Positions 37,149-59,050 of a DNA stretch of 64,000 nt are shown in pieces (within the stretch, counting starts at the first letter, position 1; every line of letters starts with the position of its first letter). A program made the translations under genes and the position numbers. Origin of the DNA: Halococcoides cellulosivorans (GTDB lineage Archaea; Halobacteriota; Halobacteria; Halobacteriales; Haloarculaceae); NCBI RefSeq assembly GCF_003058365.1, contig NZ_CP028858.1, positions 2,592,836 through 2,656,835 on the forward strand. The letters are read 5' to 3'. The notes beneath the pieces were generated by a model, which saw only the letters and a list, made by a program, of their open reading frames with translations, was not told the origin of the DNA and made no database searches.

Positions 37149-37430
37149 TTATATCAAACCCCGATCGACTATCTCGATCGCGACCTCATCCTCGGGCGAT
37201 ACAACCGCTCCCGTGACCGTCTCCACCGTCACTGCGACTGTGATCTCCGTCGCCGAAAGCCCAGGGTCGAGACTGCGAAGTTCATCGATCGAAACGTCGA
37301 CGATGCCGTCGACTCGAGAGAGCCGCCGCTCCGCCTCACTTACGAGGTCGCCGTCCGATCCGTCGGGGATCCGGATTTCGACGACCAGTTCGTTCGTCTG
37401 TCGAGTCTCGTTGTCACTGGATATTGCCAT
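37149..37430 (-). CDS. Small acidic protein downstream of Ro60
   Basis: 93 residues. The start at 37430 (MAISSDNETRQTNELVVEI) is supported by a strong GGAGGTG Shine-Dalgarno six bases upstream. Beta-alpha-beta pattern (LVVEIRIPDG, EAERRLSRVDGIVDVSIDELRSLDP, ITVAVTVE) of a small compact domain; no family recognised. It is the last gene of the Ro60 strand and may belong to the same unit. Confidence 0.65.
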   Translation of the reverse strand: MAISSDNETRQTNELVVEIRIPDGSDGDLVSEAERRLSRVDGIVDVSIDELRSLDPGLSATEITVAVTVETVTGAVVSPEDEVAIEIVDRGLI

Positions 37431-37487
37431 TGGATTCACCTCCGTTGGAGCGGCGTCGGCACGATCGCGCACGACAGCGGCCCCAAC

Positions 37488-37559
37488 TGCGCGAGGAGAG
37501 ATTCGAACTCTCGGCTCGGCCCGCTATGCCGCGTGGTGGCCAGGCTCCACTACTCGCGC
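37488..37559 (-). tRNA. tRNA-like gene, apparent anticodon AGC
   Basis: Acceptor stem GCGCGAG/CTCGCGC with discriminator A, D-arm GTGG/CCAC and T-arm GAGAG-TTCGAAT-CTCTC are good. The anticodon stem is CGGC/GCCG with a loop ATAGCGG giving AGC (Ala). A34 is unusual for archaea, so it may be a degenerate or regulatory tRNA mimic. It lies between Ro60 and the 93-aa gene. Confidence 0.6.
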
Positions 37560-37578
37560 GATAGAAACGAAAAATCGC

Positions 37579-39108
37579 TTAGACCGGTTCGAACGCCTCG
37601 ATCTCGTCGATTACCTGGAGAGGGTCCTCGGCGTGCTCGATGAACTCGAGGACGTTCTCGGACCACCCCGAGACGTTGTAGACCCCCTCGTAGCCCTCTG
37701 GAGTGACGAGGTCGCCGTACGACGCCAGGTCGATCATGTAGAGGGAGACATCGGGGGCGATGGTATCGCGATAGGCCTCGAAGGCCTCCCGGACCGTCCG
37801 GGCGTCGTCGGGAACTCTCCAGCGCGAATCCCAGATCTGCATGTCAGTGAACAGCACGACGCGATCGACGGCGATCGCCTCTTCGCGGAGGTACTCCAGG
37901 ACCTTCCAGCCATTAGTCGAGTTACCGACTTCGCGGTCGATGCCGAGGAGTGCGTCCTGTCGCTGGAGCACCGGCGTGTCGACGTGAGTCGATACGTCCT
38001 GAAAGTCGTCGCCAAAGCCACCGACGCGAGCGCCCTGGTCGGCCAATACCGCGCCGAACAACGCGCCGATCTCTTTGTACCGGATCGCACTCTGCTCGGA
38101 GAGGACCGTATCCATCGACCCCGAGAGGTCGACACCGACGAACGTGTCACCCAGGCCCTCGGGAACGCTCTCGACGGAGACGTCGACGGCCCACTCGAGC
38201 CAGCGCTCGACTGCGGGTGCGTCGATCCCGGCGTCCTGCAACGCTTTGTACGCCTGGTAGTACCGGAACGGGTAGAGCGGCGCGTGGCGCACCGCCTCGA
38301 GATCGAGGTACTCGACGATGGTCGCCTCCTCGACGCCAGCCTCGAGCATGTTCCGGAGGTTCCGGATCGATGCGAAGATCGGCAGCGAGTATGCGTCGTC
38401 TTCGATCAGCGTCTCCCACGCGTCTCGCGTGTTCCCGCGCTCGGAGATCACCGTCTCCCAGGTCTTGGGCGTGGGCAGTGGCTCGACGTCGGGATAGTCG
38501 TCCAGATCCCCGCGCATGAATCGCTCGAAGAGGACCTCCTGGTCGTCGTCGACGGGCGTCGGGTGGACGCGGTTGAACACGTCCCGGAGCGTCACTTCGC
38601 GTCGCGAGAGCTCGTACTTCTCGAGCGTGTACGCGTCGGCCATGTCGACGAGCGCGTCTTCGATCCCACGTCGGAGCGGCCAGGGTGCCGTCCCGCCGAA
38701 CAGATCGTCGTGGATCGCCAGCGCCGTCGCCGTCTCGTCCATCCGCTGGATGATCTGGGGCGCCCACTCGCGGATCAGCGACTCGTCGGTGTCGTCTTTA
38801 AACCGGTCGTCGTTGGCCGCGAGGACGAGCAGGACCTGGGGAACGTCCCGCAGATACAGCTCCTGCCGAGCATACGCGGCGAGCTTCAGGACGAACTCTG
38901 GATCCTCGTCCGCCGCCGCGTCGAAGCGCTGGACGATGGCCGCGAGGTGCTCCTCGTCGTCCTCGTAGTAGGAGTCCTCGAGCAGCTGGTTGATCGTGCG
39001 CTTGTACAGGGCGAGTCGTGGGTCGGCGGGGTCGAACGCTTCCCCACCTTCGTTGTTGGTGGTCCGCGTCGCCTCCGCGACCGTCTGTGTGGTGTCGTTG
39101 AACTGCAT
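37579..39108 (-). CDS. rsr: Ro60/TROVE protein with VWA domain
   Basis: 509 residues from ATG 39108 (MQFNDTTQTV). The HEAT-like TROVE region (about 30-340: LALYKRTINQLLEDSYYED, FVLKLAAYARQELYLRDVPQVLLVLAA) ends in a VWA domain with an intact MIDAS FVGVDLSGSMD near 350 and a later DxxD (LFTDMQIWDS). Ro60 homologues bind Y RNAs and the 3' ends of misfolded RNA and, in bacteria, work with PNPase. Archaeal members are rare. Five Y-like RNAs lie immediately upstream on the same strand, which supports the assignment. Confidence 0.92.
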   Translation of the reverse strand: MQFNDTTQTVAEATRTTNNEGGEAFDPADPRLALYKRTINQLLEDSYYEDDEEHLAAIVQRFDAAADEDPEFVLKLAAYARQELYLRDVPQVLLVLAANDDRFKDDTDESLIREWAPQIIQRMDETATALAIHDDLFGGTAPWPLRRGIEDALVDMADAYTLEKYELSRREVTLRDVFNRVHPTPVDDDQEVLFERFMRGDLDDYPDVEPLPTPKTWETVISERGNTRDAWETLIEDDAYSLPIFASIRNLRNMLEAGVEEATIVEYLDLEAVRHAPLYPFRYYQAYKALQDAGIDAPAVERWLEWAVDVSVESVPEGLGDTFVGVDLSGSMDTVLSEQSAIRYKEIGALFGAVLADQGARVGGFGDDFQDVSTHVDTPVLQRQDALLGIDREVGNSTNGWKVLEYLREEAIAVDRVVLFTDMQIWDSRWRVPDDARTVREAFEAYRDTIAPDVSLYMIDLASYGDLVTPEGYEGVYNVSGWSENVLEFIEHAEDPLQVIDEIEAFEPV

Positions 39109-39171
39109 GCTATCACCGGAGCCGCAATGGGCGACCCCGAACAGTGCCACTCGCGGGGTGCGAGTGGTCCA

Positions 39172-39300
39172 CGTCCCCGGCACGATTCGAACGTGCCACA
39201 CTCGGCTTCGAAGGCCGGTGTCCTCGTGAGGGCCGAAAGCCCGAACGAGGGCTCGTCAGAGCTTGCTCTGACGGTGCTCTCCAGACTGAGCTACGGGGAC
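39172..39300 (-). tRNA. tRNA-Arg(TCG) with 56-nt insertion
   Basis: Acceptor GTCCCCG/CGGGGAC, D-arm GCTC/GAGC, anticodon loop CTTCGAA (TCG, Arg) and T-arm GCACG-TTCGAAT-CGTGC. A 56-nt segment (about 39220-39275) sits between the D-stem and the anticodon stem, flanked by an ACC direct repeat; it folds into two hairpins. Removing it restores a normal cloverleaf with one C-A pair in the anticodon stem. It lies between the Y-like RNAs and Ro60. Confidence 0.75.
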
Positions 39301-39303
39301 AAC

Positions 39304-39434
39304 GGTGGTCGGAAAATCGCAGGAGCGAGGAATAGCGTGTTCCCAGTTACACCAGAGCGGACGGTCCGCACCCCGGATTCGAACCGAGATCTCTCGCTGA
39401 ACAGGCGAAGGAACGCTCCAGCTCGACGACCACC
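39304..39434 (-). ncRNA. Y-like RNA 1 (Ro60-associated)
   Basis: Outer stem GGTGGTCG/CGACCACC, 5' loop TCGAG against 3' loop GCGATTTTC, second stem GGAGCG/CGCTCC, then GTTCC and a T-arm-like hairpin CTCGG-TTCGAAT-CCGGG. Same plan as the four copies that follow; closest to Ro60. Confidence 0.7.
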
Positions 39435-39449
39435 CGACTGATGAGTGTC

Positions 39450-39626
39450 GGCGACCGGAAAATCGCAGGAGCGGTAGGACGGTCGCCAAACCGCGCAGGA
39501 CATATCGTCCCCACTCGAGACCATTGTGATCGGTCATCGCGTGGCTGCCAGTCGTCTGGCAGAGCGCCGGGATTCGAACCCGGATATCGCGTAAGAGCGA
39601 AGGAACACTCCTGCTCGACGGTCGCC
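39450..39626 (-). ncRNA. Y-like RNA 2 (Ro60-associated)
   Basis: Outer stem GGCGACCG/CGGTCGCC with the TCGAG and CGATTTTC internal loop, inner stem CAGGAG/CTCCTG, GTTCCTTC, and a perfect T-arm CCGGG-TTCGAAT-CCCGG. It is the longest copy (177 nt), with an extra internal domain containing a TGCCAGACGACTGGCA hairpin. Confidence 0.7.
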
Positions 39627-39641
39627 GCCAACGAATCGGTA

Positions 39642-39722
39642 GTGGTCGGAAAACCAACGGAGCGGTGCGGGAGTTGAACCCGGTGGTGGCCTGAGGAAGG
39701 AACGCTCCGTTTTGACGACCAC
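39642..39722 (-). ncRNA. Y-like RNA 3 (Ro60-associated)
   Basis: Compact 81-nt copy: outer stem GTGGTCG/CGACCAC, loop TCAAA against TTGGTTTTC, inner stem ACGGAGCG/CGCTCCGT, GTTCCTTC, and T-arm CCGGG-TTCAACT-CCCGC. Confidence 0.68.
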
Positions 39723-39837
39723 GATGAACCTCATTGAAATCGACTTCTGAGAGGCCGCTTTCGATGATCGCGGGGACTCGATTGCTTCTGTGAGGGAATA
39801 CTTCAATGCATTCTGACGGCGATCTGGACGAGAAGCG

Positions 39838-39976
39838 ACGACCGGAACACTGCCGGAGCGGTGCCCATTGTCGGGGAGAGCCCCTTTGTCTGGACGGCAC
39901 AGTAGACCTGCTCGTCTACCGCCGGGATTTGAACCCGGATGAACCATTCGAAGGATCGCTCCGACTCGACGGTCGC
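39838..39976 (-). ncRNA. Y-like RNA 4 (Ro60-associated)
   Basis: Outer stem GCGACCG/CGGTCGT, 5' loop TCGAG, inner stem TCGGAGCG/CGCTCCGG, GATCCTTCG, T-arm CCGGG-TTCAAAT-CCCGG, and an added hairpin region GTAGACGAGCAGGTCTAC. The 3' loop (CAGTGTTC) is less conserved than in the other copies. Confidence 0.62.
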
Positions 39977-39991
39977 CATTAACGGGTGATA

Positions 39992-40075
39992 GGTGGCCGG
40001 AAAACCGACGGAGCGGGTGCGGGAGTCGAACCCGCTGGGTGCCAGATGAAGGAACGCTCCGTCTCGACGGCCACC
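39992..40075 (-). ncRNA. Y-like RNA 5 (Ro60-associated)
   Basis: 84 nt: outer stem GGTGGCCG/CGGCCACC, loop TCGAG against TCGGTTTTC, inner stem ACGGAGCG/CGCTCCGT, GTTCCTTC, and T-arm GCGGG-TTCGACT-CCCGC. It is the cleanest short copy and a good model for the family; the first in the transcription direction. Confidence 0.72.
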
Positions 40076-40128
40076 CCAAGGGCCAGGAACACACCCGGTC
40101 CACGCTGGAAACACCGACAGCAGCCGCG

Positions 40129-41358: not shown

Positions 41359-42180
41359 CTATGCCCGAACTTTCCGCATCCAGTCGTCGATGGCGTCTCG
41401 ATACCCGCTCTTGTCGGGGTCGGGCAGGTCATCGAGCGCGTTGAACTGTGTGGCGATCGCCTCACGAGCGCGCCCCTCCAGATCGTCCGGAACGGTCGGG
41501 TCCGCGGACGCTCGCTTGTGTTCGACCAGCCGATCGACCAGATCGGGATCGCCACCGTCGACGGTCGTCGCCAGCCGATGGATGTCGGCCTCGATGTCCT
41601 CGTGATCGAGGACGTACTGGGCCGCGAGGAGGCCACGATAGACGTAGAGGAACTTCTTCGGCCGCGGGTCGTAGCCCTCGCTCTTCTCGGGGTCGAGGTG
41701 TTTGTAGTAGTTCGATTTCGCCATGCCCAGGTAGGCGTGAGGGACGTTCATCGGGAGGAACTCTCGGAGGAGTTCCTGGAGCGCGTCCATCTCGAGGGGC
41801 ATGCCATTCATCACCGTCGGGGCCTCGAAGACCAGCTCGAGAACGTTGTAGTTCGCCTTCGCGAGCAACGTGCCGAACTGCTTGAGTTCGTAGCTCCGCA
41901 GGTCGACCTCGCTATACTCCTCGAACCCCTAGGTCGTCCCGTCCATGTTGACGGTGACCTCGCTCGCAGGGGTGTCGAGGTAGGCGTACTCCTCGGGCGG
42001 GACGACGTGGAGGCCCCTGACGTCGATATCGCTGTCTTCGCTGTCGAACCCGTAGATATGACTTCCCGTGACCGCGTAGAAGCGAGGGCAGTGTTCGGTC
42101 CCCTTCTGCGCGACGGCGTCTTCGATGAACTCGCGTAGTTTCTCGTCACTATACGCCAGATTCAGGTCGGATATCGTCAT
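41359..42180 (-). CDS. RlaP-like nucleotidyltransferase (RNA repair), interrupted by in-frame TAG
   Basis: From ATG 42180 (MTISDLNLAYSDEKLREFI, with a GAGG Shine-Dalgarno) the frame has a polymerase-beta nucleotidyltransferase core: FYAVTGSHIYGFDSEDSDIDVRG (GS...DxDxRG). It continues after TAG at 41929-41931 in the same frame (GFEEYSEVDLRSYELKQFGTLLAKANYNVLEL) to a natural end at 41359. Without the TAG it is 273 residues, the usual RlaP/COG3541 length. RlaP proteins are predicted RNA end-healing enzymes found with RNA ligases and Ro60. Either a recent nonsense mutation or read-through; the flanking frame shows no other damage. Confidence 0.78.
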
Positions 42181-42286
42181 CTGTGATTCCTCGAATTGTG
42201 TCGTCATTGCACCGTTCGGATCGGCCATCCAGCGCCAGGGGATGGAGTGTCCGTTCGATATTCACCGACGGTGAGGCGATTCATAA

Positions 42287-42362
42287 TGCTCCCGAAGGGA
42301 ATCGAACCCTCGACCTCTGCCTTGAAAGGGCAGCGTCCCTCGCCAACGGAGACTCCAGGAGC
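42287..42362 (-). tRNA. tRNA-Glu(TTC)
   Basis: Acceptor GCTCCTG/CGGGAGC, discriminator A, anticodon stem CTGCC/GGCAG with loop CTTTCAA (TTC), and T-arm GAGGG-TTCGATT-CCCTT. The D-arm GTCTC/GAGGGAC is atypical for haloarchaeal Glu and is shared with tRNA-Gln at 44939. Confidence 0.82.
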
Positions 42363-42366
42363 ACAG

Positions 42367-42440
42367 AGTCGCGGGTCGGATTCGAACCGACGATACTCCA
42401 CTCTGCAGGCGGACGCGTTCGACCACTCTGCCACCGCGAC
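42367..42440 (-). tRNA. tRNA-Cys(GCA)
   Basis: Acceptor GTCGCGG/CCGCGAC, discriminator T (typical of Cys), anticodon loop CTGCAGA (GCA), and T-arm GTCGG-TTCGAAT-CCGAC. A complete cloverleaf without insertion. Confidence 0.85.
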
Positions 42441-42445
42441 CTGAT

Positions 42446-42519
42446 GGACACCCCCGGGATTCGAACCCGGAGCTTCTCCCGTGCCACGGGAGCACTCTGC
42501 CAGATTGAGCTAGGGGCCC
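42446..42519 (-). tRNA. tRNA-Ala(GGC), mismatched acceptor
   Basis: D-arm, anticodon stem CTCCC/GGGAG with loop GTGGCAC (GGC) and T-arm CCGGG-TTCGAAT-CCCGG are normal, but the acceptor strands GGGCCCC and GGGTGTC do not pair at positions 3 and 4. The Ala(TGC) gene at 43231 has the same defect. Confidence 0.7.
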
Positions 42520-42527
42520 CGCGAAAA

Positions 42528-42601
42528 CGCCGGGACGAGGACTCGAACCTCGCACAGCTCGGGTAACAGCCGAGCTCCCGCACCAGGCGGGACTTCCCGG
42601 C
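42528..42601 (-). tRNA. tRNA-Asn(GTT)
   Basis: Acceptor GCCGGGA/TCCCGGC, discriminator G, extended D-stem TCCCGC/GCGGGA, anticodon loop CTGTTAC (GTT), and T-arm CGAGG-TTCGAGT-CCTCG. Confidence 0.83.
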
Positions 42602-42604
42602 AGA

Positions 42605-42679
42605 AGGGCCGGGCGGGGCTCGAACCCGCGTCGAACAGTCGATTAAAAGTCGACCACTTAGCCGCTAAGTTACCGGCCC
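42605..42679 (-). tRNA. tRNA-Lys(TTT)
   Basis: Acceptor GGGCCGG/CCGGCCC, D-arm ACTTA/TAAGT, anticodon stem GTCGA/TCGAC with loop CTTTTAA (TTT), T-arm GCGGG-TTCGAGC-CCCGC, and discriminator T. Confidence 0.84.
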
Positions 42680-42683
42680 GGAG

Positions 42684-42756
42684 TGCTCCAGCCCGGATTT
42701 GAACCGGGGGCCCGGCCTCGAGAGGGCCGTGAGTTTGGCCACTACTCCACTGGAGC
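42684..42756 (-). tRNA. tRNA-Glu(CTC)
   Basis: Acceptor GCTCCAG/CTGGAGC, discriminator A, anticodon stem CGGCC/GGCCG with loop CTCTCGA (CTC), and T-arm CCCGG-TTCAAAT-CCGGG. A perfect cloverleaf. Confidence 0.87.
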
Positions 42757-42814
42757 AAAGATGAATGCCCAATGAGGGCACCACATGCCAGCCGACGCAC
42801 GCGCGTGCGTCGAG

Positions 42815-42940
42815 TCTCCCCGACACGACTGAGCGAAGCCGACAGCTTCGCGAGGGTCGGAAGACGCGAGCGTCTTCCGGAATTCGAACGTGCGTCTCCT
42901 CCTCTACAGGGAGACGTCGTCGCCGCTTGACCACGGGGAG
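42815..42940 (-). tRNA. tRNA-Tyr(GTA) with 54-nt T-arm insertion
   Basis: Acceptor CTCCCCG/CGGGGAG with discriminator A, anticodon loop CTGTAGA (GTA), and T-stem GCACG/CGTGT. A 54-nt segment (42828-42881) sits exactly between the T-loop TTCGAAT and the 3' T-stem strand. It holds two hairpins: GGAAGACG/CGTCTTCC and GCGAAGC/GCTTCGC. Excision would give a normal tRNA. Confidence 0.78.
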
Positions 42941-42983
42941 ATGGGCCGATGCGTCAACTCCCCACCGGCGACCGGGGGAAACC

Positions 42984-43108
42984 GTGGGAGCGGGAGTGTT
43001 TGGCCGGCAGATTGCTCTGCCGGCTTACACCGAGGCATTTCACCCTCGGAACAGCGGGCTCTCGCCCGTCGGCCCGTGTGGATTGGTGGAACGAAGTATC
43101 GCTCCCAC
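42984..43108. ncRNA. Structured element closed by a 9-bp stem, three hairpins
   Basis: GTGGGAGCG (42984-42992) pairs with CGCTCCCAC (43100-43108). Inside are three hairpins: GCCGGCAG/CTGCCGGC, CCGAGG/CCTCGG and CGGGC/GCCCG. It is cloverleaf-sized but has no T-arm or anticodon arm. It could be a non-coding RNA of the array; the strand is unknown. Confidence 0.5.
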
Positions 43109-43148
43109 TCGACCCAGTTCGTCTGTGAAGAGTTTGATCGGCGGGGAT

Positions 43149-43226
43149 GCACCGACCGATGTCAGCCGTCTCCGGTCCTGACGCCAGATTGGCGGCTGGT
43201 TGTGACTCCAGCGCATCGGTCGGTGC
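43149..43226. ncRNA. Structured element closed by a 13-bp perfect stem
   Basis: GCACCGACCGATG (43149-43161) is exactly complementary to 43214-43226, enclosing 52 nt with smaller hairpins (GTCAG/CTGAC, GCC/GGC). Possibly a processed RNA or a decayed tRNA-like gene. Confidence 0.5.
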
Positions 43227-43230
43227 GAGT

Positions 43231-43304
43231 GGACGCCCCCGGGAGTCGAACCCGGAGCCTCTCGCTTGCAAAGCGAGCGCTCTGCCAGATTGAGCTAAGG
43301 GCCA
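43231..43304 (-). tRNA. tRNA-Ala(TGC), mismatched acceptor
   Basis: D-arm identical to Ala(GGC), anticodon stem CTCGC/GCGAG with loop TTTGCAA (TGC), and T-arm CCGGG-TTCGACT-CCCGG. The acceptor strands TGGCCCT and GGGCGTC pair poorly beyond the three inner pairs, although GTGG and CCAC lie on the outer ends and could pair with a bulge. Confidence 0.7.
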
Positions 43305-43307
43305 CAA

Positions 43308-43382
43308 TCGCGGGACCACGATTCGAACGTGGGTCTGCTGGATGTGAGCCAGCCGGGATCGGCCAGACTACCCAATCCCGCG
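43308..43382 (-). tRNA. tRNA-Val(CAC)
   Basis: Acceptor CGCGGGA/TCCCGCG, discriminator A, D-arm GGGT/ATCC, anticodon stem GCTGG/CCAGC with loop CTCACAT (CAC), and T-arm CCACG-TTCGAAT-CGTGG. Confidence 0.83.
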
Positions 43383-43386
43383 AGAG

Positions 43387-43469
43387 TGTCGCCGCCAGGA
43401 TTCGAACCTGGGTAGGACCTTCGCCAGCGGTCCTGAGCCGCTTCCCGTTGACCGCTTGGGTACGGCGAC
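43387..43469 (-). tRNA. tRNA-Leu(CAG)
   Basis: Class II tRNA: acceptor GTCGCCG/CGGCGAC, anticodon loop CTCAGGA (CAG), long variable arm, T-arm CCAGG-TTCGAAT-CCTGG, and discriminator A. Confidence 0.87.
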
Positions 43470-43500
43470 AAGCGCAAAATCATTCGCCAGCAGCGCGCTG

Positions 43501-43618
43501 GCATGCCACCGGAAGACTCGATCGCTCACGGCAGAGCCGTTCGCTCGTGTCGTGGTCCTCACATTCGTTCGAACCACGCAGCGCTCGTCTTCCGAGGCGT
43601 GCCTCGCTTTCGCTCGGC
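43501..43618. repeat. Palindrome-rich spacer between tRNA genes
   Basis: GCATGCC at both ends and GGAAGAC (near 43511) opposite GTCTTCC (near 43587) frame a T-arm-like GGTTCGAACGAATG stretch on the minus strand. It contains no tRNA. It is made of the same GGAAGAC/GTCTTCC palindrome that occurs inside the tRNA insertions. Confidence 0.55.
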
Positions 43619-43619
43619 A

Positions 43620-43701
43620 TGCCGCCACCAGGATTCGAACCTGGGAAGGACTCACCACACGGCCCTCAACCGTGTCCCTTTGGCCACTCGGGCATGGCGG
43701 C
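43620..43701 (-). tRNA. tRNA-Leu(GAG)
   Basis: Acceptor GCCGCCA/TGGCGGC, anticodon stem ACGG/CCGT with loop TTGAGGG (GAG), long variable arm, T-arm CCAGG-TTCGAAT-CCTGG, and discriminator A. Confidence 0.85.
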
Positions 43702-43704
43702 GCA

Positions 43705-43786
43705 TTCCGCGGGGAGGATTCGAACCTCCGAAGGTCTATCCGGCGGGTCTTAAGCCCGCTGCCGTCGACCACTTGGCTACCGCGGA
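43705..43786 (-). tRNA. tRNA-Leu(TAA)
   Basis: Acceptor TCCGCGG/CCGCGGA, anticodon stem GCGGG/CCCGC with loop CTTAAGA (TAA), long variable arm, and T-arm GGAGG-TTCGAAT-CCTCC. It abuts the next gene without a gap. Confidence 0.86.
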
Positions 43787-43917
43787 TGAGCACGGGCTGA
43801 ATCGAACCAGAGGAAGACTCGCTCCGCTCGTCTTCCAGGGCTCGAAAACCGCCGGACGGTTTTCGAACAGCCGTCTCCCGCCTGAAGGCGGGCGTCTTGC
43901 CATTGGACCACGTACCC
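43787..43917 (-). tRNA. tRNA with apparent TCA anticodon and T-loop insertion
   Basis: Acceptor GGGTACG/CGTGCTC, D-arm GTC/GAC in a Gly/Pro-like GGTCCAATGGCAAGAC, and T-stem GGCTG/CAGCC. The anticodon arm CCCGC-CTTCAG-GCGGG has a six-base loop reading TCA (UGA codon). The T-loop contains about 61 extra nt with two hairpins (CGAAAACCG/CGGTTTTCG and GGAAGAC/GTCTTCC) and a duplicated TTCGA. Suppressor function is possible but unproven. Confidence 0.6.
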
Positions 43918-43926
43918 AGCTGAGAA

Positions 43927-44012
43927 CGCCGAGGGAGTGATTCGAACACTCGTGGCCTCGCAGCCGTCGCCTCTCGAGGGCGATCCCTTGACCAGGCTCG
44001 GGGAACCTCGGC
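43927..44012 (-). tRNA. tRNA-Ser(CGA)
   Basis: Acceptor GCCGAGG/CCTCGGC, discriminator G, anticodon stem TCGCC/GGCGA with loop CTCGAGA (CGA), long variable arm, and T-arm GAGTG-TTCGAAT-CACTC. Confidence 0.86.
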
Positions 44013-44018
44013 AGATCA

Positions 44019-44104
44019 CGGCGGGAGGGCGATTTGAACGCCCGTGTCCTCGTGGACACCGTGGTTCCAGCACGGTCCCTTGGCCAGGCTAGGGAAATCC
44101 CGCC
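44019..44104 (-). tRNA. tRNA-Ser(GGA)
   Basis: Acceptor GGCGGGA/TCCCGCC, discriminator G, anticodon stem CCGTG/CACGG with loop CTGGAAC (GGA), variable arm GTCC/GGAC, and T-arm GGGCG-TTCAAAT-CGCCC. Confidence 0.87.
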
Positions 44105-44107
44105 GAA

Positions 44108-44239
44108 CGGTGAGACGGAGAGTCGAACGCCGCGAATCAGAGATTCGCAAGCCCGCGGCTCCGATCGGAGCCGCGGACTCCGAAGCCTAGCGGCTCTCGA
44201 TTTCAAATCGAGTGCAGTCACCTGTCTGCCTGTCTCACC
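44108..44239 (-). tRNA. tRNA-Ser(TGA) with 50-nt T-arm insertion
   Basis: Acceptor GGTGAGA/TCTCACC, discriminator G, D-stem GCAG/CTGC, anticodon stem CTCGA/TCGAG with loop TTTGAAA (TGA), and T-stem CGGAG/CTCCG. A 50-nt segment (44128-44177) separates the 5' T-stem strand from the T-loop. It folds into a 12-bp perfect hairpin around GGCTCCGATCGGAGCC and a GCGAATC/GATTCGC hairpin. Confidence 0.76.
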
Positions 44240-44357
44240 ACACCGGAAGACTCACTCCGCTCGCGGGTCGTTCCTCCCCGCTCGCAATCGAGGGCTTCCT
44301 CCGGTCGCCCTCGCATCGTTCGTCTTCCGAGCCCCGCTTCGCTTTCGCTCAGCGGGA

Positions 44358-44444
44358 CGCCACGACTCGGATTCGAACCGAGAGACCGGCACTCACCGGC
44401 CACGGCGTAGCAGGCCGTTGGGTTCACCGGTACCCAGTCGCGGC
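44358..44444 (-). tRNA. tRNA-Ser(GCT)
   Basis: Acceptor GCCGCGA/TCGTGGC, discriminator G, anticodon stem ACGGC/GCCGT with loop CTGCTAC (GCT), variable arm GCCGG/CCGGT, and T-arm CTCGG-TTCGAAT-CCGAG. The 44243-44357 spacer before it carries the GGAAGAC/GTCTTCC palindrome but no tRNA. Confidence 0.86.
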
Positions 44445-44449
44445 ACAAT

Positions 44450-44575
44450 TGGGTCGATGAGGGTCCCGTGAGCAAAGCGAACGGGACGCCGAAAGAGCGC
44501 CGCGCTCTTTCGGAAATTCGAACCTCGGTCTCGTGCACCCAAGGCACGGATCTTCGACCACGAGACCATCGACCC
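44450..44575 (-). tRNA. tRNA-Pro(TGG) with 53-nt T-arm insertion
   Basis: Acceptor GGGTCGA/TCGACCC, anticodon stem CGTGC/GCACG with loop CTTGGGT (TGG), and T-stem CGAGG/CCTCA. A 53-nt segment (44463-44515) follows the T-loop TTCGAAT, as in tRNA-Tyr, with hairpins CCGAAAGAGCGC/GCGCTCTTTCGG and GTCCCGT/ACGGGAC. Confidence 0.76.
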
Positions 44576-44854
44576 AAAGGATGGTTGTATGTCTATACGT
44601 CTGCGCACGCGACGGGGACGGAACGACTGTTCGCTACCGTCTCCCGTCGCGTTGGGGCGTGCTTCGACCGTCGGAGCGGTCGGGAATGCCGCATCGGTCC
44701 ATGCAGGTTGCAGACCCTTCCGGGCCCAGCCCGCCGGTCTGAACGTACCGGCGAGAGTGCCTGCCTCGATGGGCATCCCCAGCGTGGATTGACCACGCAG
44801 CCACGCCGTCAGAGACCAGCTCTGACGAGCCCAGCCTCGATCGGCTCGGCTGGA
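44576..44854. other. Array spacer with hairpins, no tRNA found
   Basis: Several short hairpins are visible (GCGACGGG/CCCGTCGC near 44609-44650, CCGCCGGT/ACCGGCG near 44731-44752, CGTGG/CCACG near 44785). No anticodon arm plus T-arm combination was found. Confidence 0.45.
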
Positions 44855-44928
44855 CGCCGACGCCGGGATTCGAACCCAGGTCACGACCGTGACAGGGTCG
44901 CATGCTAGCCGGACTACACCACGTCGGC
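44855..44928 (-). tRNA. tRNA-Asp(GTC)
   Basis: Acceptor GCCGACG/CGTCGGC, discriminator G, anticodon stem CGACC/GGTCG with loop CTGTCAC (GTC), and T-arm CTGGG-TTCGAAT-CCCGG. Confidence 0.86.
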
Positions 44929-48588: not shown

Positions 48589-49287
48589 CTACTCGTCAAC
48601 GTACTCCGGTCGCTGCTCGTATTCGATCGGATCGTTCACGTCGATCCGTTGGAACGCTTGTAATCTGAATGCACACGCATCGCAGGTGCCACACGCAGGT
48701 GATGACTCGCGATAGCAACTCCACGTGAGTTCGTAGGGAACATCCATTTCCACCCCTCGTTCGGCGATATCGGTTTTTGACCACTCCACAAAGGGCGCGA
48801 TGAGTTCGATCTCGGTTTCCGGCTTCGTCCCCGTATCGATCACAGATTGGAAGGCGTCGAAAAACGCTGGCCGACAGTCCGGGTATCCAGAAAAATCCTC
48901 ACTATGCGCGCCAATAAACACCGCTGAGCAGTCATTGGCTTCTGCGTACGACGTAGCCATCGCGAGCAGGTTCGCGTTCCGGAACGGAACGTACGAAGTC
49001 GGGATTTCGTCACTCTCTAAGTCTGCATCCTCGACATCAATCGAATCGTCCGTGAGACTCGACGTCCCGATAGTGGCGAGGTATTCAGTTTCAATGTGCA
49101 AGAAATCCGCCGCGTCAACTTCTTCGGCCAGCACTTTCGCACACTCACGTTCTGTGGACTCCGTCTGTTGACCGTAGGAAGTGTGGAAAAGATATGGTTC
49201 GTATCCACGGTCCATCGCTTCGTAGACTGCAGTTGCACTGTCCATTCCACCGGAGACAAGAATTACGGCGCGTTTTGAATCAATCAT
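48589..49287 (-). CDS. queC: 7-cyano-7-deazaguanine (preQ0) synthase QueC
   Basis: 232 residues. ATP-pyrophosphatase PP-loop VILVSGGMDSATAVYEA at the start, and a C-terminal zinc site (CYRESSPACGTCDACAFR). QueC turns 7-carboxy-7-deazaguanine into preQ0, the base used by DpdA for DNA and by archaeal TGT for tRNA. Third in a run with queD and queE. Ends with TAG. Confidence 0.93.
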   Translation of the reverse strand: MIDSKRAVILVSGGMDSATAVYEAMDRGYEPYLFHTSYGQQTESTERECAKVLAEEVDAADFLHIETEYLATIGTSSLTDDSIDVEDADLESDEIPTSYVPFRNANLLAMATSYAEANDCSAVFIGAHSEDFSGYPDCRPAFFDAFQSVIDTGTKPETEIELIAPFVEWSKTDIAERGVEMDVPYELTWSCYRESSPACGTCDACAFRLQAFQRIDVNDPIEYEQRPEYVDE

Positions 49288-49372
49288 CTGTGTGGGGAGA
49301 GTTGTTTTCGGTCCTGTACCGTGACTGCGCTCTGAATCACGTATTGCTCACCGCTCAATCGAGATTTCTCAA

Positions 49373-50149
49373 TCATGTTCCTGGTTCATCGTTCCACAAG
49401 TCGACGTGAAGCCGCGGCGTATATCGATAGCCATACTCCATCGCCAACTCGGCGACTATTTTGCGTGTCTCGTCTAACTGCTCTCTCGTCATTCCCTCGG
49501 GCATGAGAAGAACAGCAGAATCAGCAATCCTGGAGGTCGTTGCCGCTCGTATTTCCCCCAGTAGTTCCTCAATTTCAACCATGTCGTTGCGATCCGTGAT
49601 GACGAATTTCAATTGGAACTCGTGGTCATCCACGAGAGAAGCGAGGGCCTCGAGATTGATCCGATTATTTTCATGACGACTCGCCCACTCTCCATCCCCT
49701 TGCGGGTCCTTCTTTTCGGTCGGCGTGCTGCTTGCCAGCTTCGGACTGATGCTCACGAGGTCGATAGGGGCATCCCGATAGATGGTTCCATTTGTCTCGA
49801 CTGTTATGTGGTACCCAGATTTGTTCAGTTCGTCAAGAAGGCGGACGCTATTTTCGTGCAGTAGAGGCTCACCACCCGTAAGAACGACGTGGTCCGCGTC
49901 GTGCGATTGTACCTCGTCAACGACACCTTCAATCTCCATCCACGAATGATTTGGCTCCCAAGACGTGTAATAAGAGTCACAGAACCAACAGCGGAGGTTG
50001 CAGCCGCTCGTACGAACAAAGACTGTCGGCACTCCAGCGAGAATCCCCTCTCCTTGCAGCGAATAAAAGAGCTCATTGATCGGAAGAGAGTTTCCGGAAC
50101 GCCGTGGCTCACCATCAGGTATCTCGATGTTTTCAGCGTTGACCAGCAT
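49373..50149 (-). CDS. queE: 7-carboxy-7-deazaguanine synthase QueE
   Basis: 258 residues. Radical-SAM core with the cluster motif SGCNLRCWFCDSYYTSW (CxxxCxxC), then VVLTGGEPLL and the QLKFVITD strand typical of QueE. It converts carboxytetrahydropterin to 7-carboxy-7-deazaguanine. Two bases separate it from queD, so the genes are co-transcribed. Confidence 0.93.
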   Translation of the reverse strand: MLVNAENIEIPDGEPRRSGNSLPINELFYSLQGEGILAGVPTVFVRTSGCNLRCWFCDSYYTSWEPNHSWMEIEGVVDEVQSHDADHVVLTGGEPLLHENSVRLLDELNKSGYHITVETNGTIYRDAPIDLVSISPKLASSTPTEKKDPQGDGEWASRHENNRINLEALASLVDDHEFQLKFVITDRNDMVEIEELLGEIRAATTSRIADSAVLLMPEGMTREQLDETRKIVAELAMEYGYRYTPRLHVDLWNDEPGT

Positions 50150-50151
50150 TG

Positions 50152-50604
50152 TTATCTCGCACAGAGTTCATCAGTCTCCCGTACCGTCACCGAAACCTCC
50201 GAGACGGTTTCAGGAAATGTCTCCAACATCCGTTCTTCGAGAACCGCACTCATTATTTCGGCTGTCGGTGGGTAGTCGAGGATGATAACAGCATCTCCAT
50301 CTCCACTCTCTTCGAACGCCTCAATCAGGGGATCGCCCTTCTCCAGCAGAAACTGATGATCCCACTCGAATATTATTGAAGTAATATCGCCCTTGTCGAC
50401 GACCCATCCGTCTTCGGTGAGTTCACCGGTCACCTCTACATTGATCTTGTAGTTGTGGCCGTGTGGACGGGAACACTTCCCTACGTGGTGACGGATCCGG
50501 TGTCCTGCGCTAATCCGGATCGGCCGGTCCCGCCCAACTTCTAGCGTCCGCTTCCCGGCTGTTTGGATGGGATCATCACTCTCTGTAAGCTTGCGGTCGC
50601 GCAC
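50152..50604 (-). CDS. queD: 6-carboxytetrahydropterin synthase QueD
   Basis: 150 residues from GTG 50604. ISAGHRIRHHVGKCSRPHGHNYKINVEV holds the catalytic Cys and the zinc His residues (read in two parts). First enzyme of the preQ0 branch after GTP cyclohydrolase. First gene of the que unit; promoter lies in the AT-rich region above 50604. Confidence 0.92.
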   Translation of the reverse strand: MRDRKLTESDDPIQTAGKRTLEVGRDRPIRISAGHRIRHHVGKCSRPHGHNYKINVEVTGELTEDGWVVDKGDITSIIFEWDHQFLLEKGDPLIEAFEESGDGDAVIILDYPPTAEIMSAVLEERMLETFPETVSEVSVTVRETDELCAR

Positions 50605-50803
50605 AAGAACGATAATATCGGGGTATTACTTAGATATGATGGTCGCATACCGCGTCGACCACCGCCGGCAGATATAACGCGAATATATTACGTCAGAACG
50701 TCGGGGGAAATGACCATACACGAACACAATAAAATCGTCCTCTACTGGAGTAGAGTGAGAAGAACCGTTACAATTGAAAGGAGTTGCTACCATAGGCTAC
50801 CCA

Positions 50804-51367
50804 ATGATATCCGAAGAGCTACGGTCAATTCCTACTGGAACACCTGGTGTGTATTGCATGTTTGACCTGGACGGTGAACCAGCCTATGCAGGCCGCAGTA
50901 GTAAGTTGCGAAGCCGTCTCAGACAACATTTCATCCGACAGGACTCCAGCGTGGTGAGCTATGGACGATTGGACATTTGGGATATTTCTTTCGTCGACTG
51001 GTGGAGCACAGAGGAGACGAACCGCGCAGAGGAGAAACTACTCGCTGAATATCGTCCCTACTTGAATTTCGATGCAGACGTGGGAGCGTCAAGTGCCGAG
51101 ACAGAGATATCCGTAGATGACCCAGACGGAACCCTGGAATTGGTAACCAAGGATGAATTAGAGTTTCGGGCAGATCCATACAATCGATCCAAACAAAAGT
51201 TAGAGCACTTACTGCGTATGCTCGACAAAATAAAGCTGGCTGGGCACAGTGATGACACAAAACAGACGGTATTCGAGCATCAACGGATTCTTTATCAAAA
51301 CGTTGTTGAATTTCTCGACGTCGAACCCCCACAGAACAACACCAATCTGACCGAGTGGAATGATTAA
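50804..51367 (+). CDS. GIY-YIG nuclease
   Basis: 187 residues from ATG 50804 (an upstream TTG at 50774 is possible). The GIY-YIG signature appears as PTGTPGVYCMFDLDGEPAYAGRS (GVY...AYAG) with the Arg-rich helix SKLRSRLRQHFIRQD and Glu in RAEEKLLAEYRPYLN. A small DNA endonuclease placed between the preQ0 genes and the nuclease-helicase; likely part of the same island and possibly its restriction arm (inference). Confidence 0.85.
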   Translation: MISEELRSIPTGTPGVYCMFDLDGEPAYAGRSSKLRSRLRQHFIRQDSSVVSYGRLDIWDISFVDWWSTEETNRAEEKLLAEYRPYLNFDADVGASSAETEISVDDPDGTLELVTKDELEFRADPYNRSKQKLEHLLRMLDKIKLAGHSDDTKQTVFEHQRILYQNVVEFLDVEPPQNNTNLTEWND

Positions 51368-51509
51368 GTCCTCGTGTTTTCGCCCGTTCGATCAACGTAT
51401 CCACGAGTAACTTCCTTGTGGCACGTACTCCTGACCACGGTACAGCTCAGGTTTTCGTGATAACAATTAAAAAGGCGTTTACCCTCTGGAAAAATAACCC
51501 CATCTTCCT

Positions 51510-54500
51510 ATGAGTCCCTCCCCCGAACCACGTGATACGCTCAGCCCGAGTGCGATCGCTCAGTTCTATAAACTACAGCAGTGCCCAATGTATCTCTATC
51601 ATCGATACGTCGACGAGGATTTCGCTGAGCTAACTGATGTCCCGCTCAGCCCATTACTTGCTGCTACAGGCGAGAAGTTTGAGGAGAGTCAGGTACGACG
51701 CCTTCTGGAAGCCGACGTTTACAGCGTTGGAGACTCCGATAGCGTCTTACCGTTCGACGAAACCTGGGCCGGCAATCAGACGACTGACATTGACCGGATC
51801 AGCGGACTCATCGAGGAGCTAGCATCCGGTGAACGGTCGCGACCAGTCGTCTTCTTCCAACCACCACTAGCCGGCACCATCGGATCGTGGCCCGTCCACG
51901 GTGCTGCAGACGTCGTCATCGCTTCCTCCGGCGCATCAAGGGCTGGTGCAAGCGTCGAGCTGCGAGTCATCGAAGTCAAATCCTCGAGTGCTGTCCAAAC
52001 CCACCATCAGCTCCAAGCTGCAACCTATGCGCTCCTGTTCGAGTGCCTACTAGAAGAATCCAACATTCAGGTTTCGGCCAGTATTGTATCGCAAGATCCA
52101 GAATACAACGATCTGGCATCGATCGTGACGAGCACTGCTGGTCTCGAACCCAGCCGGCTAAGTACGTTCGACTTACAGACTCGCCAAAACGACGTTCAAC
52201 TACTGCTCGAAGCGGGCGGTACAGTCGACGATATCCTTCTTGAGGATGGAGATATGCGTTCAAGTGGAGATCCACCGACGTACCGGATCGATGGGAGATG
52301 TGACGGGTGTTCTAAGCAGATTCGATGTGTTGCACACTCGGTAAGGACCAAACAGCTCTCACTACTTGGGTTGACAGAAGGCGTTCAGCAGTCGTTGGCC
52401 GAACTCGGCGTAAACGACCTCCATGATCTGGCAACACTTTATGATTGGCCGACGAATACGAGGGACCGACGAGCAACCTCACACGCACACCCACAGCCAA
52501 CGGATCCAGATCTCGTCTCTCGCATCACACGTGAGACAGACGTCTCGAACCTACGCAACATCGCACAAATCGCCCACCGGTTCCTCCGCGAGATTAGCCC
52601 AGAATACAATACAGAGTGGAACCAAAGCGCTGATGCTGGCCCTTGGGGAGACTATCTTATCGGGACCGGTCGGAATCTCCCCGATGACGACCCACCATCC
52701 GGATTCAACCTCAGCTATCCGAGACAATCGCTGGTCCGGGTGTACCCATATGTCCAACATGATATCGTCCGGAACAGAATTGTATTCCTCGCCGCGAAAG
52801 TCACATCGACGCACTACGAGCAGTCCCATGACGATGGACTCTTCGTGGCTGCACGTCCAGAGGGACACCCCAACGACACTGACGCCAAAGACGAAGAAGA
52901 ACAGAGACTAATCGAGGACTTTTTCCAGAAGCTCTCGGTGGCGATTCAGAAGGTACGTCCAGACCTCACCACAGATGACTACGACCCAACCGAGGGCTTC
53001 ATTCATCTCTATCCTTACGGCGATTCACAACGGAAGTGGCTCGTAGAGGCAGTTAAACGGCATACCGACTCCGAAGCAGCCCGTTCCCTCCGAACCCTGT
53101 TGGGCTATCGCGAAGCTATCGACCAGTCTGTGGTCAGCATCCTCCAGGAGGAGTTCCGGGACCGACACGCGTTACGATATCCCGGACTTGGAATTGTCCA
53201 AACGGCCGCACAGTTCTGGGGGAGGAACTCCGAACTGGATTGGGAGGGGCCACGAGATAGCTCAAAAACACCACTCAAGGAGACATTTGCGGCGGGGTTC
53301 TGGGAGATTGGAGCTGAATACAATATACTTGATGATAGAATTAGCCTCGGGTTCGACGATGGACTACAGATTCCTGATGACCATATGATCCAGAGCAGCT
53401 ACCCGGTCGTCGGACGTCATCAAGAAGTCCTTCCCTTGGAATACATCTATGCCTCTAAGGAATTCGACCTTCTCCGACCTGAGATTGCGGATGATAAGGA
53501 GGTACGGGAGCAAATCATCCGGTACCGCCACCATACCGATGAGAACTCCCCCCAGATCACTTTCGACGATATTGAGGACGGCGTCCAAGCGATTTGCGAA
53601 GCGTACGAACACATCGAACGATGCATTCGCGATAAGGATGCCACCATTGAGAAGAATCCATTAAACCTCAGAGATCTGTCGGCCAACTCCCTTGGCGAAT
53701 CCGAGCTTCAGTCGACCTGCCTCGAGTATCAGAATCTCGAATACGGGGCACAACGACGCCAACTTGAACAAACGTACCGAACACCGCTCCCAGAGCGAGT
53801 CGGTGAAGGATCAGCAATCCCTTTCGAAGTGACGGTCCCACCGGTCGAATCAGCCGATGAAGATGAGCAGCGGAACTCGGTGAAAGGATCAATCCTTCGC
53901 TCGCTCACGCCGGGACGGAACGACGGACTCCAACCTGATAGCCAACCGAGCCTCGAAGTAGGCAACTTCGTCGTTCTGACGCCACTGGTCAGCTCACAGA
54001 ACGGGAGACTCACCGAGGCCGTCGACGACCCAGTCAAAATCAAACACCAAGTGCTCGGTGTTCTCACAGCACTTGACCCCGCGGAAGGGACTATCCGCGT
54101 CTCACTGAACTGGCGATACAATATGTCTCGAGAGACGTTCAAACCAAACCACGTTGGATGGACGACCGATAGCGACGACGAATATGGTCGCCAGTTCATT
54201 GACGAAGGCATGACGTTCGTCGTGGACACGGCCCTCGACGACTTCGTCGGGCACCGTGCCCATCAGGCATTGTCTCAAGCCCAGGAAAACGACGTCCACA
54301 ACCGGCTTGTGGATGTGTACGATGACGAGATCTCGGACGCGCTAGAGACACCAGCGCCACTGTTTGATCGGAAAGCGATTAACAAATTTATCGAGGCATT
54401 TGACATGGCGATGCCGGAATCTGCGAATCAAGACCAGCAGTCTTTCGTGACTCGTCTTAACCACACAGTCGCAGCACTACAAGGACCCCCAGGAACCGGA

Positions 54501-55931: not shown

Positions 55932-56032
55932 CCATCCCTGGGAGATAATCGACAGGTCATCCGATCCCAATCCATTCGGTATCGGCATGGATACTACTCA
56001 GTGGAGAAGAAGCCGGCTCCCCGCTCAACCAC

Positions 56033-58789: not shown

Positions 58790-59050
58790 CGTATTTTGAT
58801 TGGTGTCGTCCAGACAGAGCTATTTGACTGCTCACTAAGGGCGTCTACTATACGCAACTGCTCGCCATACATAAATTGTGAAGTGAGAAGGCTATGGCGG
58901 TTCGCGGTAACATCTTCGGGATATATACTTAACCACACCCTCGTAATAAACTAGCCTGGTCTGTGTCTTTGGGAGTTTTCCACCCCTCCCCTCCTCCCCC
59001 CACCCCAAATACTAAAGATACAAACAGCATCGGAGCCAAAAGGATATCTA

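What the first reader, a model, noticed from the sequence alone, without database searches (positions are those of the whole stretch)
37488..40075. Archaeal Ro60 locus with five tandem Y-RNA-like genes
A TROVE/VWA protein is preceded on the same strand by five RNAs with a common architecture: a paired end (GGTGGTCG/CGACCACC type), an asymmetric internal loop (TCGAG opposite GATTTTC), an inner GGAGCG/CGCTCC stem, GTTCCTTC, and a tRNA-like T-arm. Bacterial Y RNAs of the YrlA type combine a Ro60-binding stem with a tRNA mimic. A tandem array of five in an archaeon is, as far as I know, not described.
Basis: partly seen in the sequence, partly recalled or inferred. Interest (0 to 1): 0.93.

Follow-up and report, generated by a model that had tools for sequence, protein, structure and literature searches.

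The report
Y RNA arrays beside archaeal Ro60
A salt-loving archaeon carries a row of five (plus one stray) small RNA genes in front of a gene for the Ro60 RNA-quality-control protein; the same RNAs accompany intact Ro60 genes across about a tenth of haloarchaea and were not found without the gene, which points to an archaeal branch of the 'Y RNA' system known from animals and bacteria.

Summary
On the minus strand, five related RNA elements (39303-40076) precede a Ro60 gene (37579-39108); a sixth, divergent one lies at 42969-43121 in the neighbouring tRNA array. A covariance model built without any window sequence finds all of them (E 2e-20 to 8e-6). Their stems covary strongly (14 of 17 pairs changed on both sides; 0 of 500 shuffles). 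In 392 haloarchaeal genomes, all 43 with a TROVE gene carry the elements and none of the 349 without does, above chance level. Arrays hold 1-5 copies, usually 3. The Ro60-proximal type has the layout of bacterial YrlA: stem, 5x8-nt internal loop, stem, T-arm, closed acceptor, D-arm. It is a circularly permuted tRNA mimic, yet Rfam's YrlA model does not detect it. Ro60 relatives in a bacterial phage and a Deinococcus plasmid have YrlA-like RNAs with the same UUACUUC/UUCCUUC motif, three in tandem in the phage. The genome has no PNPase or exosome, so the known bacterial effector is excluded; RNase R is the best substitute. Best reading: archaeal Y RNAs, apparently undescribed (the TROVE/tRNA-cluster link itself was published in 2019). 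Ro60 binding and transcription remain untested.

The parts
37579..39108 (-). Ro60 (TROVE + vWA) protein, 509 aa
   Evidence: Pfam TROVE 1.6e-20; PDB profile hits Thermus phage phiLo Ro60, RSR, Xenopus and human Ro60; AlphaFold model matches 9kop, 9l5y, 2nvo, 1yvp
39303..39435 (-). Y element 1 (Ro60-proximal): S1-5x8 loop-S2, T-arm (39372-39388), closed acceptor hairpin, D-arm (39337-39352): permuted tRNA mimic
   Evidence: R2 E=2.3e-12; five helices supported on alignment A3
39446..39630 (-). Y element 2: long, T-arm, acceptor-like hairpin, extra hairpins
   Evidence: descriptor score 74; partial R2 hits 39542-39627 E=9.6e-7 and 39449-39488; fold
39640..39724 (-). Y element 3: minimal, T-arm only
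   Evidence: R2 E=2.5e-15
39836..39978 (-). Y element 4: T-arm, acceptor hairpin, third conserved hairpin that is not a D-arm
   Evidence: R2 E=2.9e-12; alignment A4
39991..40076 (-). Y element 5: minimal, T-arm only
   Evidence: R2 E=1.6e-20
42969..43121 (-). Sixth, divergent Y element inside the tRNA array
   Evidence: R1 E=7e-9, R2 E=8e-6; relatives far upstream in other Ro60 loci
39171..39302 (-). tRNA-Arg(TCG) gene with about 55 nt inserted after the D-arm, abutting element 1
   Evidence: sequence compared with the uninterrupted tRNA-Arg at the same place in L045
42286..44928 (-). array of 15 tRNA genes upstream
   Evidence: ARAGORN; listed in PMC6333295 as part of the cluster CP028858.1 2632007-2637763
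37488..37559 (-). tRNA-Ala downstream of Ro60
   Evidence: ARAGORN
37149..37472 (-). small conserved ORF behind Ro60
   Evidence: similar sequence in 37 of 48 Ro60 loci; no Pfam or PHROG match

Best explanation
The elements are Y RNAs of an archaeal Ro60 ribonucleoprotein. Shown: a conserved, covarying two-helix stem with a 5x8 internal loop, exclusive co-occurrence with Ro60, a position just upstream on the same strand, and in one type the arm order of YrlA. Inferred: Ro60 binds the S1/internal-loop end, as Rsr binds the lower stem of bacterial Y RNAs; the array is transcribed with the flanking tRNAs and cut apart by tRNA processing; the variable heads (permuted tRNA, T-arm only, three-hairpin) dock proteins that recognise tRNA elbows, and so gate Ro60 or tether it to an effector. 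Because the genome has no PNPase or exosome, the most likely effector nuclease is its RNase R-type RNB protein. Overall role: quality control or repair of tRNA-like and damaged RNA on tRNA-rich mobile islands. My probabilities: Ro60-bound Y RNA about 0.85; tethering or gating as the mechanism about 0.5; RNase R as the partner about 0.3.
For: Covariation: 14/17 pairs changed on both sides, 59 such cells against 17 shuffled, 0/500 shuffles. T, acceptor and D stems supported in the proximal type and T/acceptor in element-4 type. All 43 TROVE-positive of 392 haloarchaeal genomes hit the model at E<=3e-10; the best TROVE-negative hit is 3.7e-5 and the seven inspected look like chance. 41 of 43 loci in a named, overlapping set have the elements; the two without hold a truncated Ro60 and a Ro60 fragment. 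Rfam YrlA consensus has the same order and loop sizes. YrlA-like RNAs next to Ro60 relatives in a Xanthomonas phage and a Deinococcus plasmid carry UUACUUC/UUCCUUC after S2. Ro60 K164 and H182 invariant, R170 nearly so, aligning with Xenopus K170, H187 and the R174 region. No RNase PH family protein; one RNB protein. In Allomeiothermus the Ro60 gene is followed by an RNB exoribonuclease; RtcB, Pnkp or RlaP genes near other relatives.
Against: No transcript or binding data. Rfam YrlA gives no match to the elements. Elements 3 and 5 lack a D-arm and acceptor, and some family members lack a canonical T-arm. RNase R tethering rests on absence of alternatives and on one bacterial neighbour; RNB is not next to Ro60 here. 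The HGTV-1 element upstream of Ro60 is below model detection and was recognised only by layout.
Confidence: 0.8

Rival explanations
1. tRNA decoys: the tRNA-like heads, stabilised by Ro60, act as competitive bait for anticodon nucleases or other tRNA-attacking effectors in virus-host conflict; Ro60 is only the carrier. Not exclusive of the main reading.
For: Location in tRNA arrays on mobile islands and in a virus; competitive inhibition of a nuclease was raised for YrlA in PMC7790460; RNA-repair genes near relatives.
Against: The anticodon arm, the target of such nucleases, is the very part replaced by the Ro60 stem; minimal types keep only a T-arm; the stem with its internal loop is the best conserved part.
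Confidence: 0.2
2. Decayed tRNA genes: the elements are tRNA pseudogenes left over in a tRNA array.
For: T-arms and D-arm-like pieces; earlier annotation counted tRNA pseudogenes in such clusters.
Against: Strong covariation in two stems that tRNAs do not have, fixed loop motifs, conservation across Ro60 copies only 52-88% identical to the window's, exclusive linkage to Ro60.
Confidence: 0.03
3. Cis-acting leader: the structures regulate transcription or translation of the Ro60 mRNA rather than acting as separate RNAs.
For: Always just upstream of Ro60 on the same strand.
Against: Several copies in tandem with mostly 0-14 nt gaps, a tRNA-Arg between the array and Ro60 in several loci, further copies 2-5 kb away.
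Confidence: 0.05
4. Repair scaffold: the RNP holds cleaved tRNAs for RtcB, RlaP or Pnkp-type repair rather than for decay.
For: RtcB and a nucleotidyltransferase flank Ro60 in HGTV-1; a broken RlaP gene in the window; RtcB or Pnkp near bacterial relatives.
Against: No intact repair gene next to Ro60 in the window; the RlaP fragment is found in only three other loci.
Confidence: 0.2

Closest known systems
YrlA-type bacterial Y RNA (Rfam RF02553)
   Same: Next to a Ro60 gene; terminal stem, 5-nt/8-nt internal loop, second stem, then T-arm, closed acceptor hairpin, D-arm: a permuted tRNA mimic.
   Different: Archaeal; not detected by the Rfam model; tandem arrays with different heads, some reduced to a T-arm; UCGAG and UUUUC loop motifs; genome without PNPase.
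D. radiodurans Y RNA / Rsr / PNPase (RYPER)
   Same: Ro60 family protein plus Y RNA with a Ro60-binding stem and a second module (described in PMC8394870 and PMC4726728).
   Different: No PNPase or exosome homologue in this genome, so the partner must be another protein.
Vertebrate Y RNAs (hY1-hY5)
   Same: Lower stem with internal loop as Ro60 site; invariant K164 and H182 align with Xenopus Ro60 K170 and H187, which I recall as Y RNA-binding residues.
   Different: No sequence similarity found by Rfam; a tRNA-like head is absent from vertebrate Y RNAs.
TROVE genes in haloarchaeal tRNA clusters (Morgado and Vicente 2019, PMC6333295)
   Same: Same clusters, this one included (HArcel1, CP028858.1 2632007-2637763); TROVE gene in 20 of 29 clusters.
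   Different: Y RNAs and Ro60 are not mentioned.
Ro60/YrlA-like loci of bacterial phages and plasmids (Xanthomonas phage Olaya, Deinococcus taeanensis plasmid)
   Same: Related Ro60 (30-31% identical), YrlA-like RNAs upstream with UUACUUC/UUCCUUC after S2, three in tandem in the phage.
   Different: Different stem and loop sequences; the archaeal model R1 does not detect them.

Membership tests
Ro60 / TROVE family protein | TROVE domain and vWA domain with MIDAS (DxSxS) | tested here: met
   Pfam TROVE over cut-off, vWA_Ro60 just below; VDLSGSM motif; fold matches to 2nvo and 1yvp
Ro60 / TROVE family protein | Residues for Y RNA binding (Xenopus K170, R174, H187; recalled, not read here) | tested here: met
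   K164 and H182 invariant, R170 at least 90% in 16-17 sequences; R174 placement uncertain by one gap
YrlA-type Y RNA | Gene next to a Ro60 gene | tested here: met
   43 of 43 TROVE-positive genomes, 0 of 349 others
YrlA-type Y RNA | Terminal stem and second stem separated by the internal loop | tested here: met
   5x8 loop as in the Rfam consensus; covariation in both stems
YrlA-type Y RNA | tRNA-like head with T, closed acceptor and D arms | tested here: met
   Met for element 1 and its class: five helices. Element 4 has T and acceptor arms but another third hairpin; elements 3 and 5 have only a T-arm
YrlA-type Y RNA | Score above the Rfam RF02553 gathering threshold (69 bits); a detection threshold rather than a biological feature | tested here: not met
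   No match to the elements at E up to 10; best genome hits 21 bits, in the tRNA array. The phage and plasmid relatives score 40-50 bits
YrlA-type Y RNA | Bound by Ro60 in the cell | not testable with these tools
   needs purification or CLIP
RYPER degradation complex | PNPase as tethered ring nuclease | tested here: not met
   no RNase PH family protein in the 99.97% complete genome

The most novel reading that the evidence does not exclude
One archaeal Ro60 is served by a set of Y RNAs that share the Ro60-binding stem but carry different heads, so that a single protein is plugged into several partners, among them RNase R in place of PNPase; the set spreads with tRNA arrays on plasmids, chromosomal islands and tailed viruses.
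Probability: 0.35. Interest if true: 0.9.

Novelty: new variant of a known kind. Interest (0 to 1): 0.8.

Why it matters
Y RNAs are known from animals and bacteria. This appears to be an archaeal branch, seen in 22 of 86 sampled haloarchaeal genera, which would place Ro60/Y RNA particles in all three domains. The arrays offer natural experiments: one Ro60, several heads. The absence of PNPase and exosome makes the question 'what does a Y RNA tether when its known partner is missing' directly testable in culturable haloarchaea, and the occurrence in a tailed virus and on plasmids suggests a route by which the module moves.

Tried and rejected
A first descriptor scan used a wrong loop register and found almost nothing; corrected. 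An alternative inner pairing in the element-1 class (second GGAGCG copy against CGCTCC) was considered; the outer pairing is the one kept across the class, the inner fits only some members (from alignment A3). Rfam search of the region gave no Y RNA family. Weak model hits in genomes without Ro60 were inspected and look like chance GC-rich stems without the loop motifs, not tRNAs. Searches for elements near more distant Ro60 relatives (Bacillus phage G, Brevundimonas, Vibrio, Streptomyces phages, several Bacteroidota) gave nothing firm; one viral contig (L135) and L128 have suggestive CGTAG...ATACTTC layouts, not established. The key YrlA papers (Chen 2014, Wang 2018, Sim and Wolin 2018) are not in the held library, so YrlA features come from a review and the Rfam consensus.

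Full report
What is there. The window is part of a 2.72-Mb single-contig genome. Its coordinates and tRNA cluster agree with 'Haloarculaceae archaeon HArcel1', CP028858.1, cluster 2632007-2637763, in PMC6333295. On the minus strand lies a 509-aa Ro60 protein (37579-39108). Upstream of it come a tRNA-Arg gene with an insert (39171-39302), five RNA elements (39303-40076), an unassigned ORF, a broken RlaP gene, and 15 tRNA genes (42286-44928). Inside that tRNA array lies a sixth element, 42969-43121. Gaps between array neighbours are 11-12 nt; one is 113 nt.

Architecture. Each element has an outer stem S1 (7-12 bp), a 5-nt loop (TCGAG type) opposite an 8-nt loop (ending in TTTTC or a variant), an inner stem S2 (7-8 bp), then TTCCTTC or ATACTTC, and a variable head. 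Element 1 carries a T-arm, an acceptor stem closed by a loop, and a D-arm (GTGTAACTGGGAACAC), in that order. This is a tRNA cut open at the anticodon, with S2/S1 in place of the anticodon stem. Element 4 has a T-arm, an acceptor hairpin and a third hairpin that is not a D-arm. Elements 3 and 5 have a T-arm alone. Element 2 is long with extra hairpins.

More than chance. A model from sequences of other genomes only (R2) finds the elements in the window at E=1.6e-20 to 8e-6; apart from a second partial hit to element 2 the next match is E=0.027. On 16 diverse short elements, 89.9% of cells pair against 64.7% in shuffles, 14 of 17 pairs have changes on both sides, and no shuffle of 500 reaches the observed score; sliding the partner by 1-3 columns destroys the signal. 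The relatedness of sequences inflates such counts, but the slid controls keep relatedness. The element-1 class supports all five helices; the element-4 class supports S1, S2 and the T stem well and the remaining hairpins less.

Link to Ro60. TROVE is present in 43 of 392 sampled genomes of the class (22 of 86 genera). Model R1 hits all 43 at E<=3e-10; in the other 349 the best hit is E=3.7e-5, and the seven inspected lack the combination of loop motifs and are not tRNAs. In oriented loci the high-scoring elements lie within about 1 kb upstream of Ro60 on the same strand, with a few extra copies 2-5 kb away; reverse-strand control hits never exceed 59 points against 60-79 for most array elements. 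By the descriptor, counts are mostly 3, ranging 1-5; it scores zero in a truncated Ro60 copy (L052) and in two loci of the 52%-identical Ro60 branch where the loop begins with G and the elements are nevertheless visible and found by R1. In a named collection that overlaps this sample, 41 of 43 haloarchaeal loci carry them; the exceptions hold a truncated Ro60 and a Ro60 fragment. Several haloarchaeal Ro60 genes lie on plasmids.

Virus. Halogranum tailed virus 1 has a Ro60 45% identical. R1 finds a weak but well-formed element in its tRNA array (NC_021328 45703-45790, E=0.002), and the 133-nt gap before its Ro60 holds a second candidate with GCGAG, GGAGTCGG, ATACTTC and matching 3' arms (67604-67703). 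The second rests on layout only.

Comparison with known kinds. Rfam's YrlA consensus, printed, reads S1 (6 bp), 5-nt loop, S2 (7 bp), T-arm, closed acceptor, D-arm, S2', 8-nt loop, S1'. The order and loop sizes equal those of element 1. Rfam's YrlA model does not find the archaeal elements. It does give sub-threshold matches (40-50 bits, E=1e-5 to 2e-8) to RNAs in front of Ro60 in Xanthomonas phage Olaya (three in tandem by layout) and on a Deinococcus taeanensis plasmid, which also have TTACTTC or TTCCTTC after S2. These link the archaeal elements to YrlA. I therefore treat them as Y RNAs by architecture and genetic linkage; binding is not shown.

Protein. The profile of the archaeal Ro60 finds Thermus phage phiLo Ro60, Rsr, Xenopus and human Ro60 in the PDB. 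A predicted model (mean pLDDT 74.7) matches the same structures. K164 and H182 are invariant and R170 nearly so; they align with Xenopus K170, H187 and the region of R174, which I recall (not read here) as residues needed for Y RNA binding.

Mechanism. Bacterial YrlA tethers Rsr to PNPase (PMC8394870, PMC4726728). This genome has no RNase PH family protein, hence neither PNPase nor exosome, but one RNB protein of the RNase R type. In Allomeiothermus silvanus the gene after Ro60 encodes an RNB exoribonuclease. RtcB, Pnkp or RlaP occur near other relatives. I infer a Ro60 particle for decay or repair of damaged tRNA-like RNA, with heads that recruit tRNA-binding partners. The decoy idea voiced for YrlA in PMC7790460 remains open.

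Novelty. The TROVE/tRNA-cluster association in haloarchaea is published (20 of 29 clusters, PMC6333295) without mention of Y RNA or Ro60. No held paper combines Y RNA with haloarchaea. The held library lacks most subscription papers, so priority is not proven. I rate it a new variant of a known kind.

Noticed in passing
window 42969-43121 (-): Sixth, divergent Y element inside the tRNA array; relatives 2-5 kb upstream of Ro60 in other loci (L038, L039, L041, L066, possibly L053).
   Followed up: partly
window 39171-39302 (-): tRNA-Arg(TCG) interrupted after the D-arm by about 55 nt with two hairpins; the same kind of insert sits at the same place in a tRNA-Thr of L041. Single copy in this genome. 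Intron or mobile element unclear.
   Followed up: partly
window 41359-42180 (-): RlaP (RNA-repair nucleotidyltransferase) gene broken by an in-frame stop; similar sequence in L038, L040, L061.
   Followed up: no
window 37149-37472 (-): Small ORF directly behind Ro60, similar in 37 of 48 loci, no Pfam or PHROG match; possible third component.
   Followed up: partly
window 48589-61839: QueC, radical SAM protein, large helicase, HATPase and a TGT paralogue: possibly a 7-deazaguanine DNA-modification (Dpd-like) island.
   Followed up: no
window 8212-29400: STAND NTPase with TPR repeats, GmrSD-type enzyme, three integrase-like genes: a mobile, defence-rich island.
   Followed up: no
L138 (Xanthomonas phage Olaya) 1650-2270: Three tandem YrlA-like RNAs in front of a Ro60 gene in a 43-kb phage, sub-threshold for Rfam.
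   Followed up: partly
L145 (Allomeiothermus silvanus plasmid) 2300-5653: Ro60 gene followed directly by an RNB exoribonuclease gene.
   Followed up: no
element-4 class, e.g. window 39836-39978: Conserved third hairpin GTCCGGACAAAG...CCCGACACCGGAC in place of the D-arm; its AAAG/GACA internal loop resembles no motif I could name.
   Followed up: no
L135, L136, L128 upstream of Ro60: CGTAG...ATACTTC layouts near more distant Ro60 genes; may be further Y RNA branches.
   Followed up: partly
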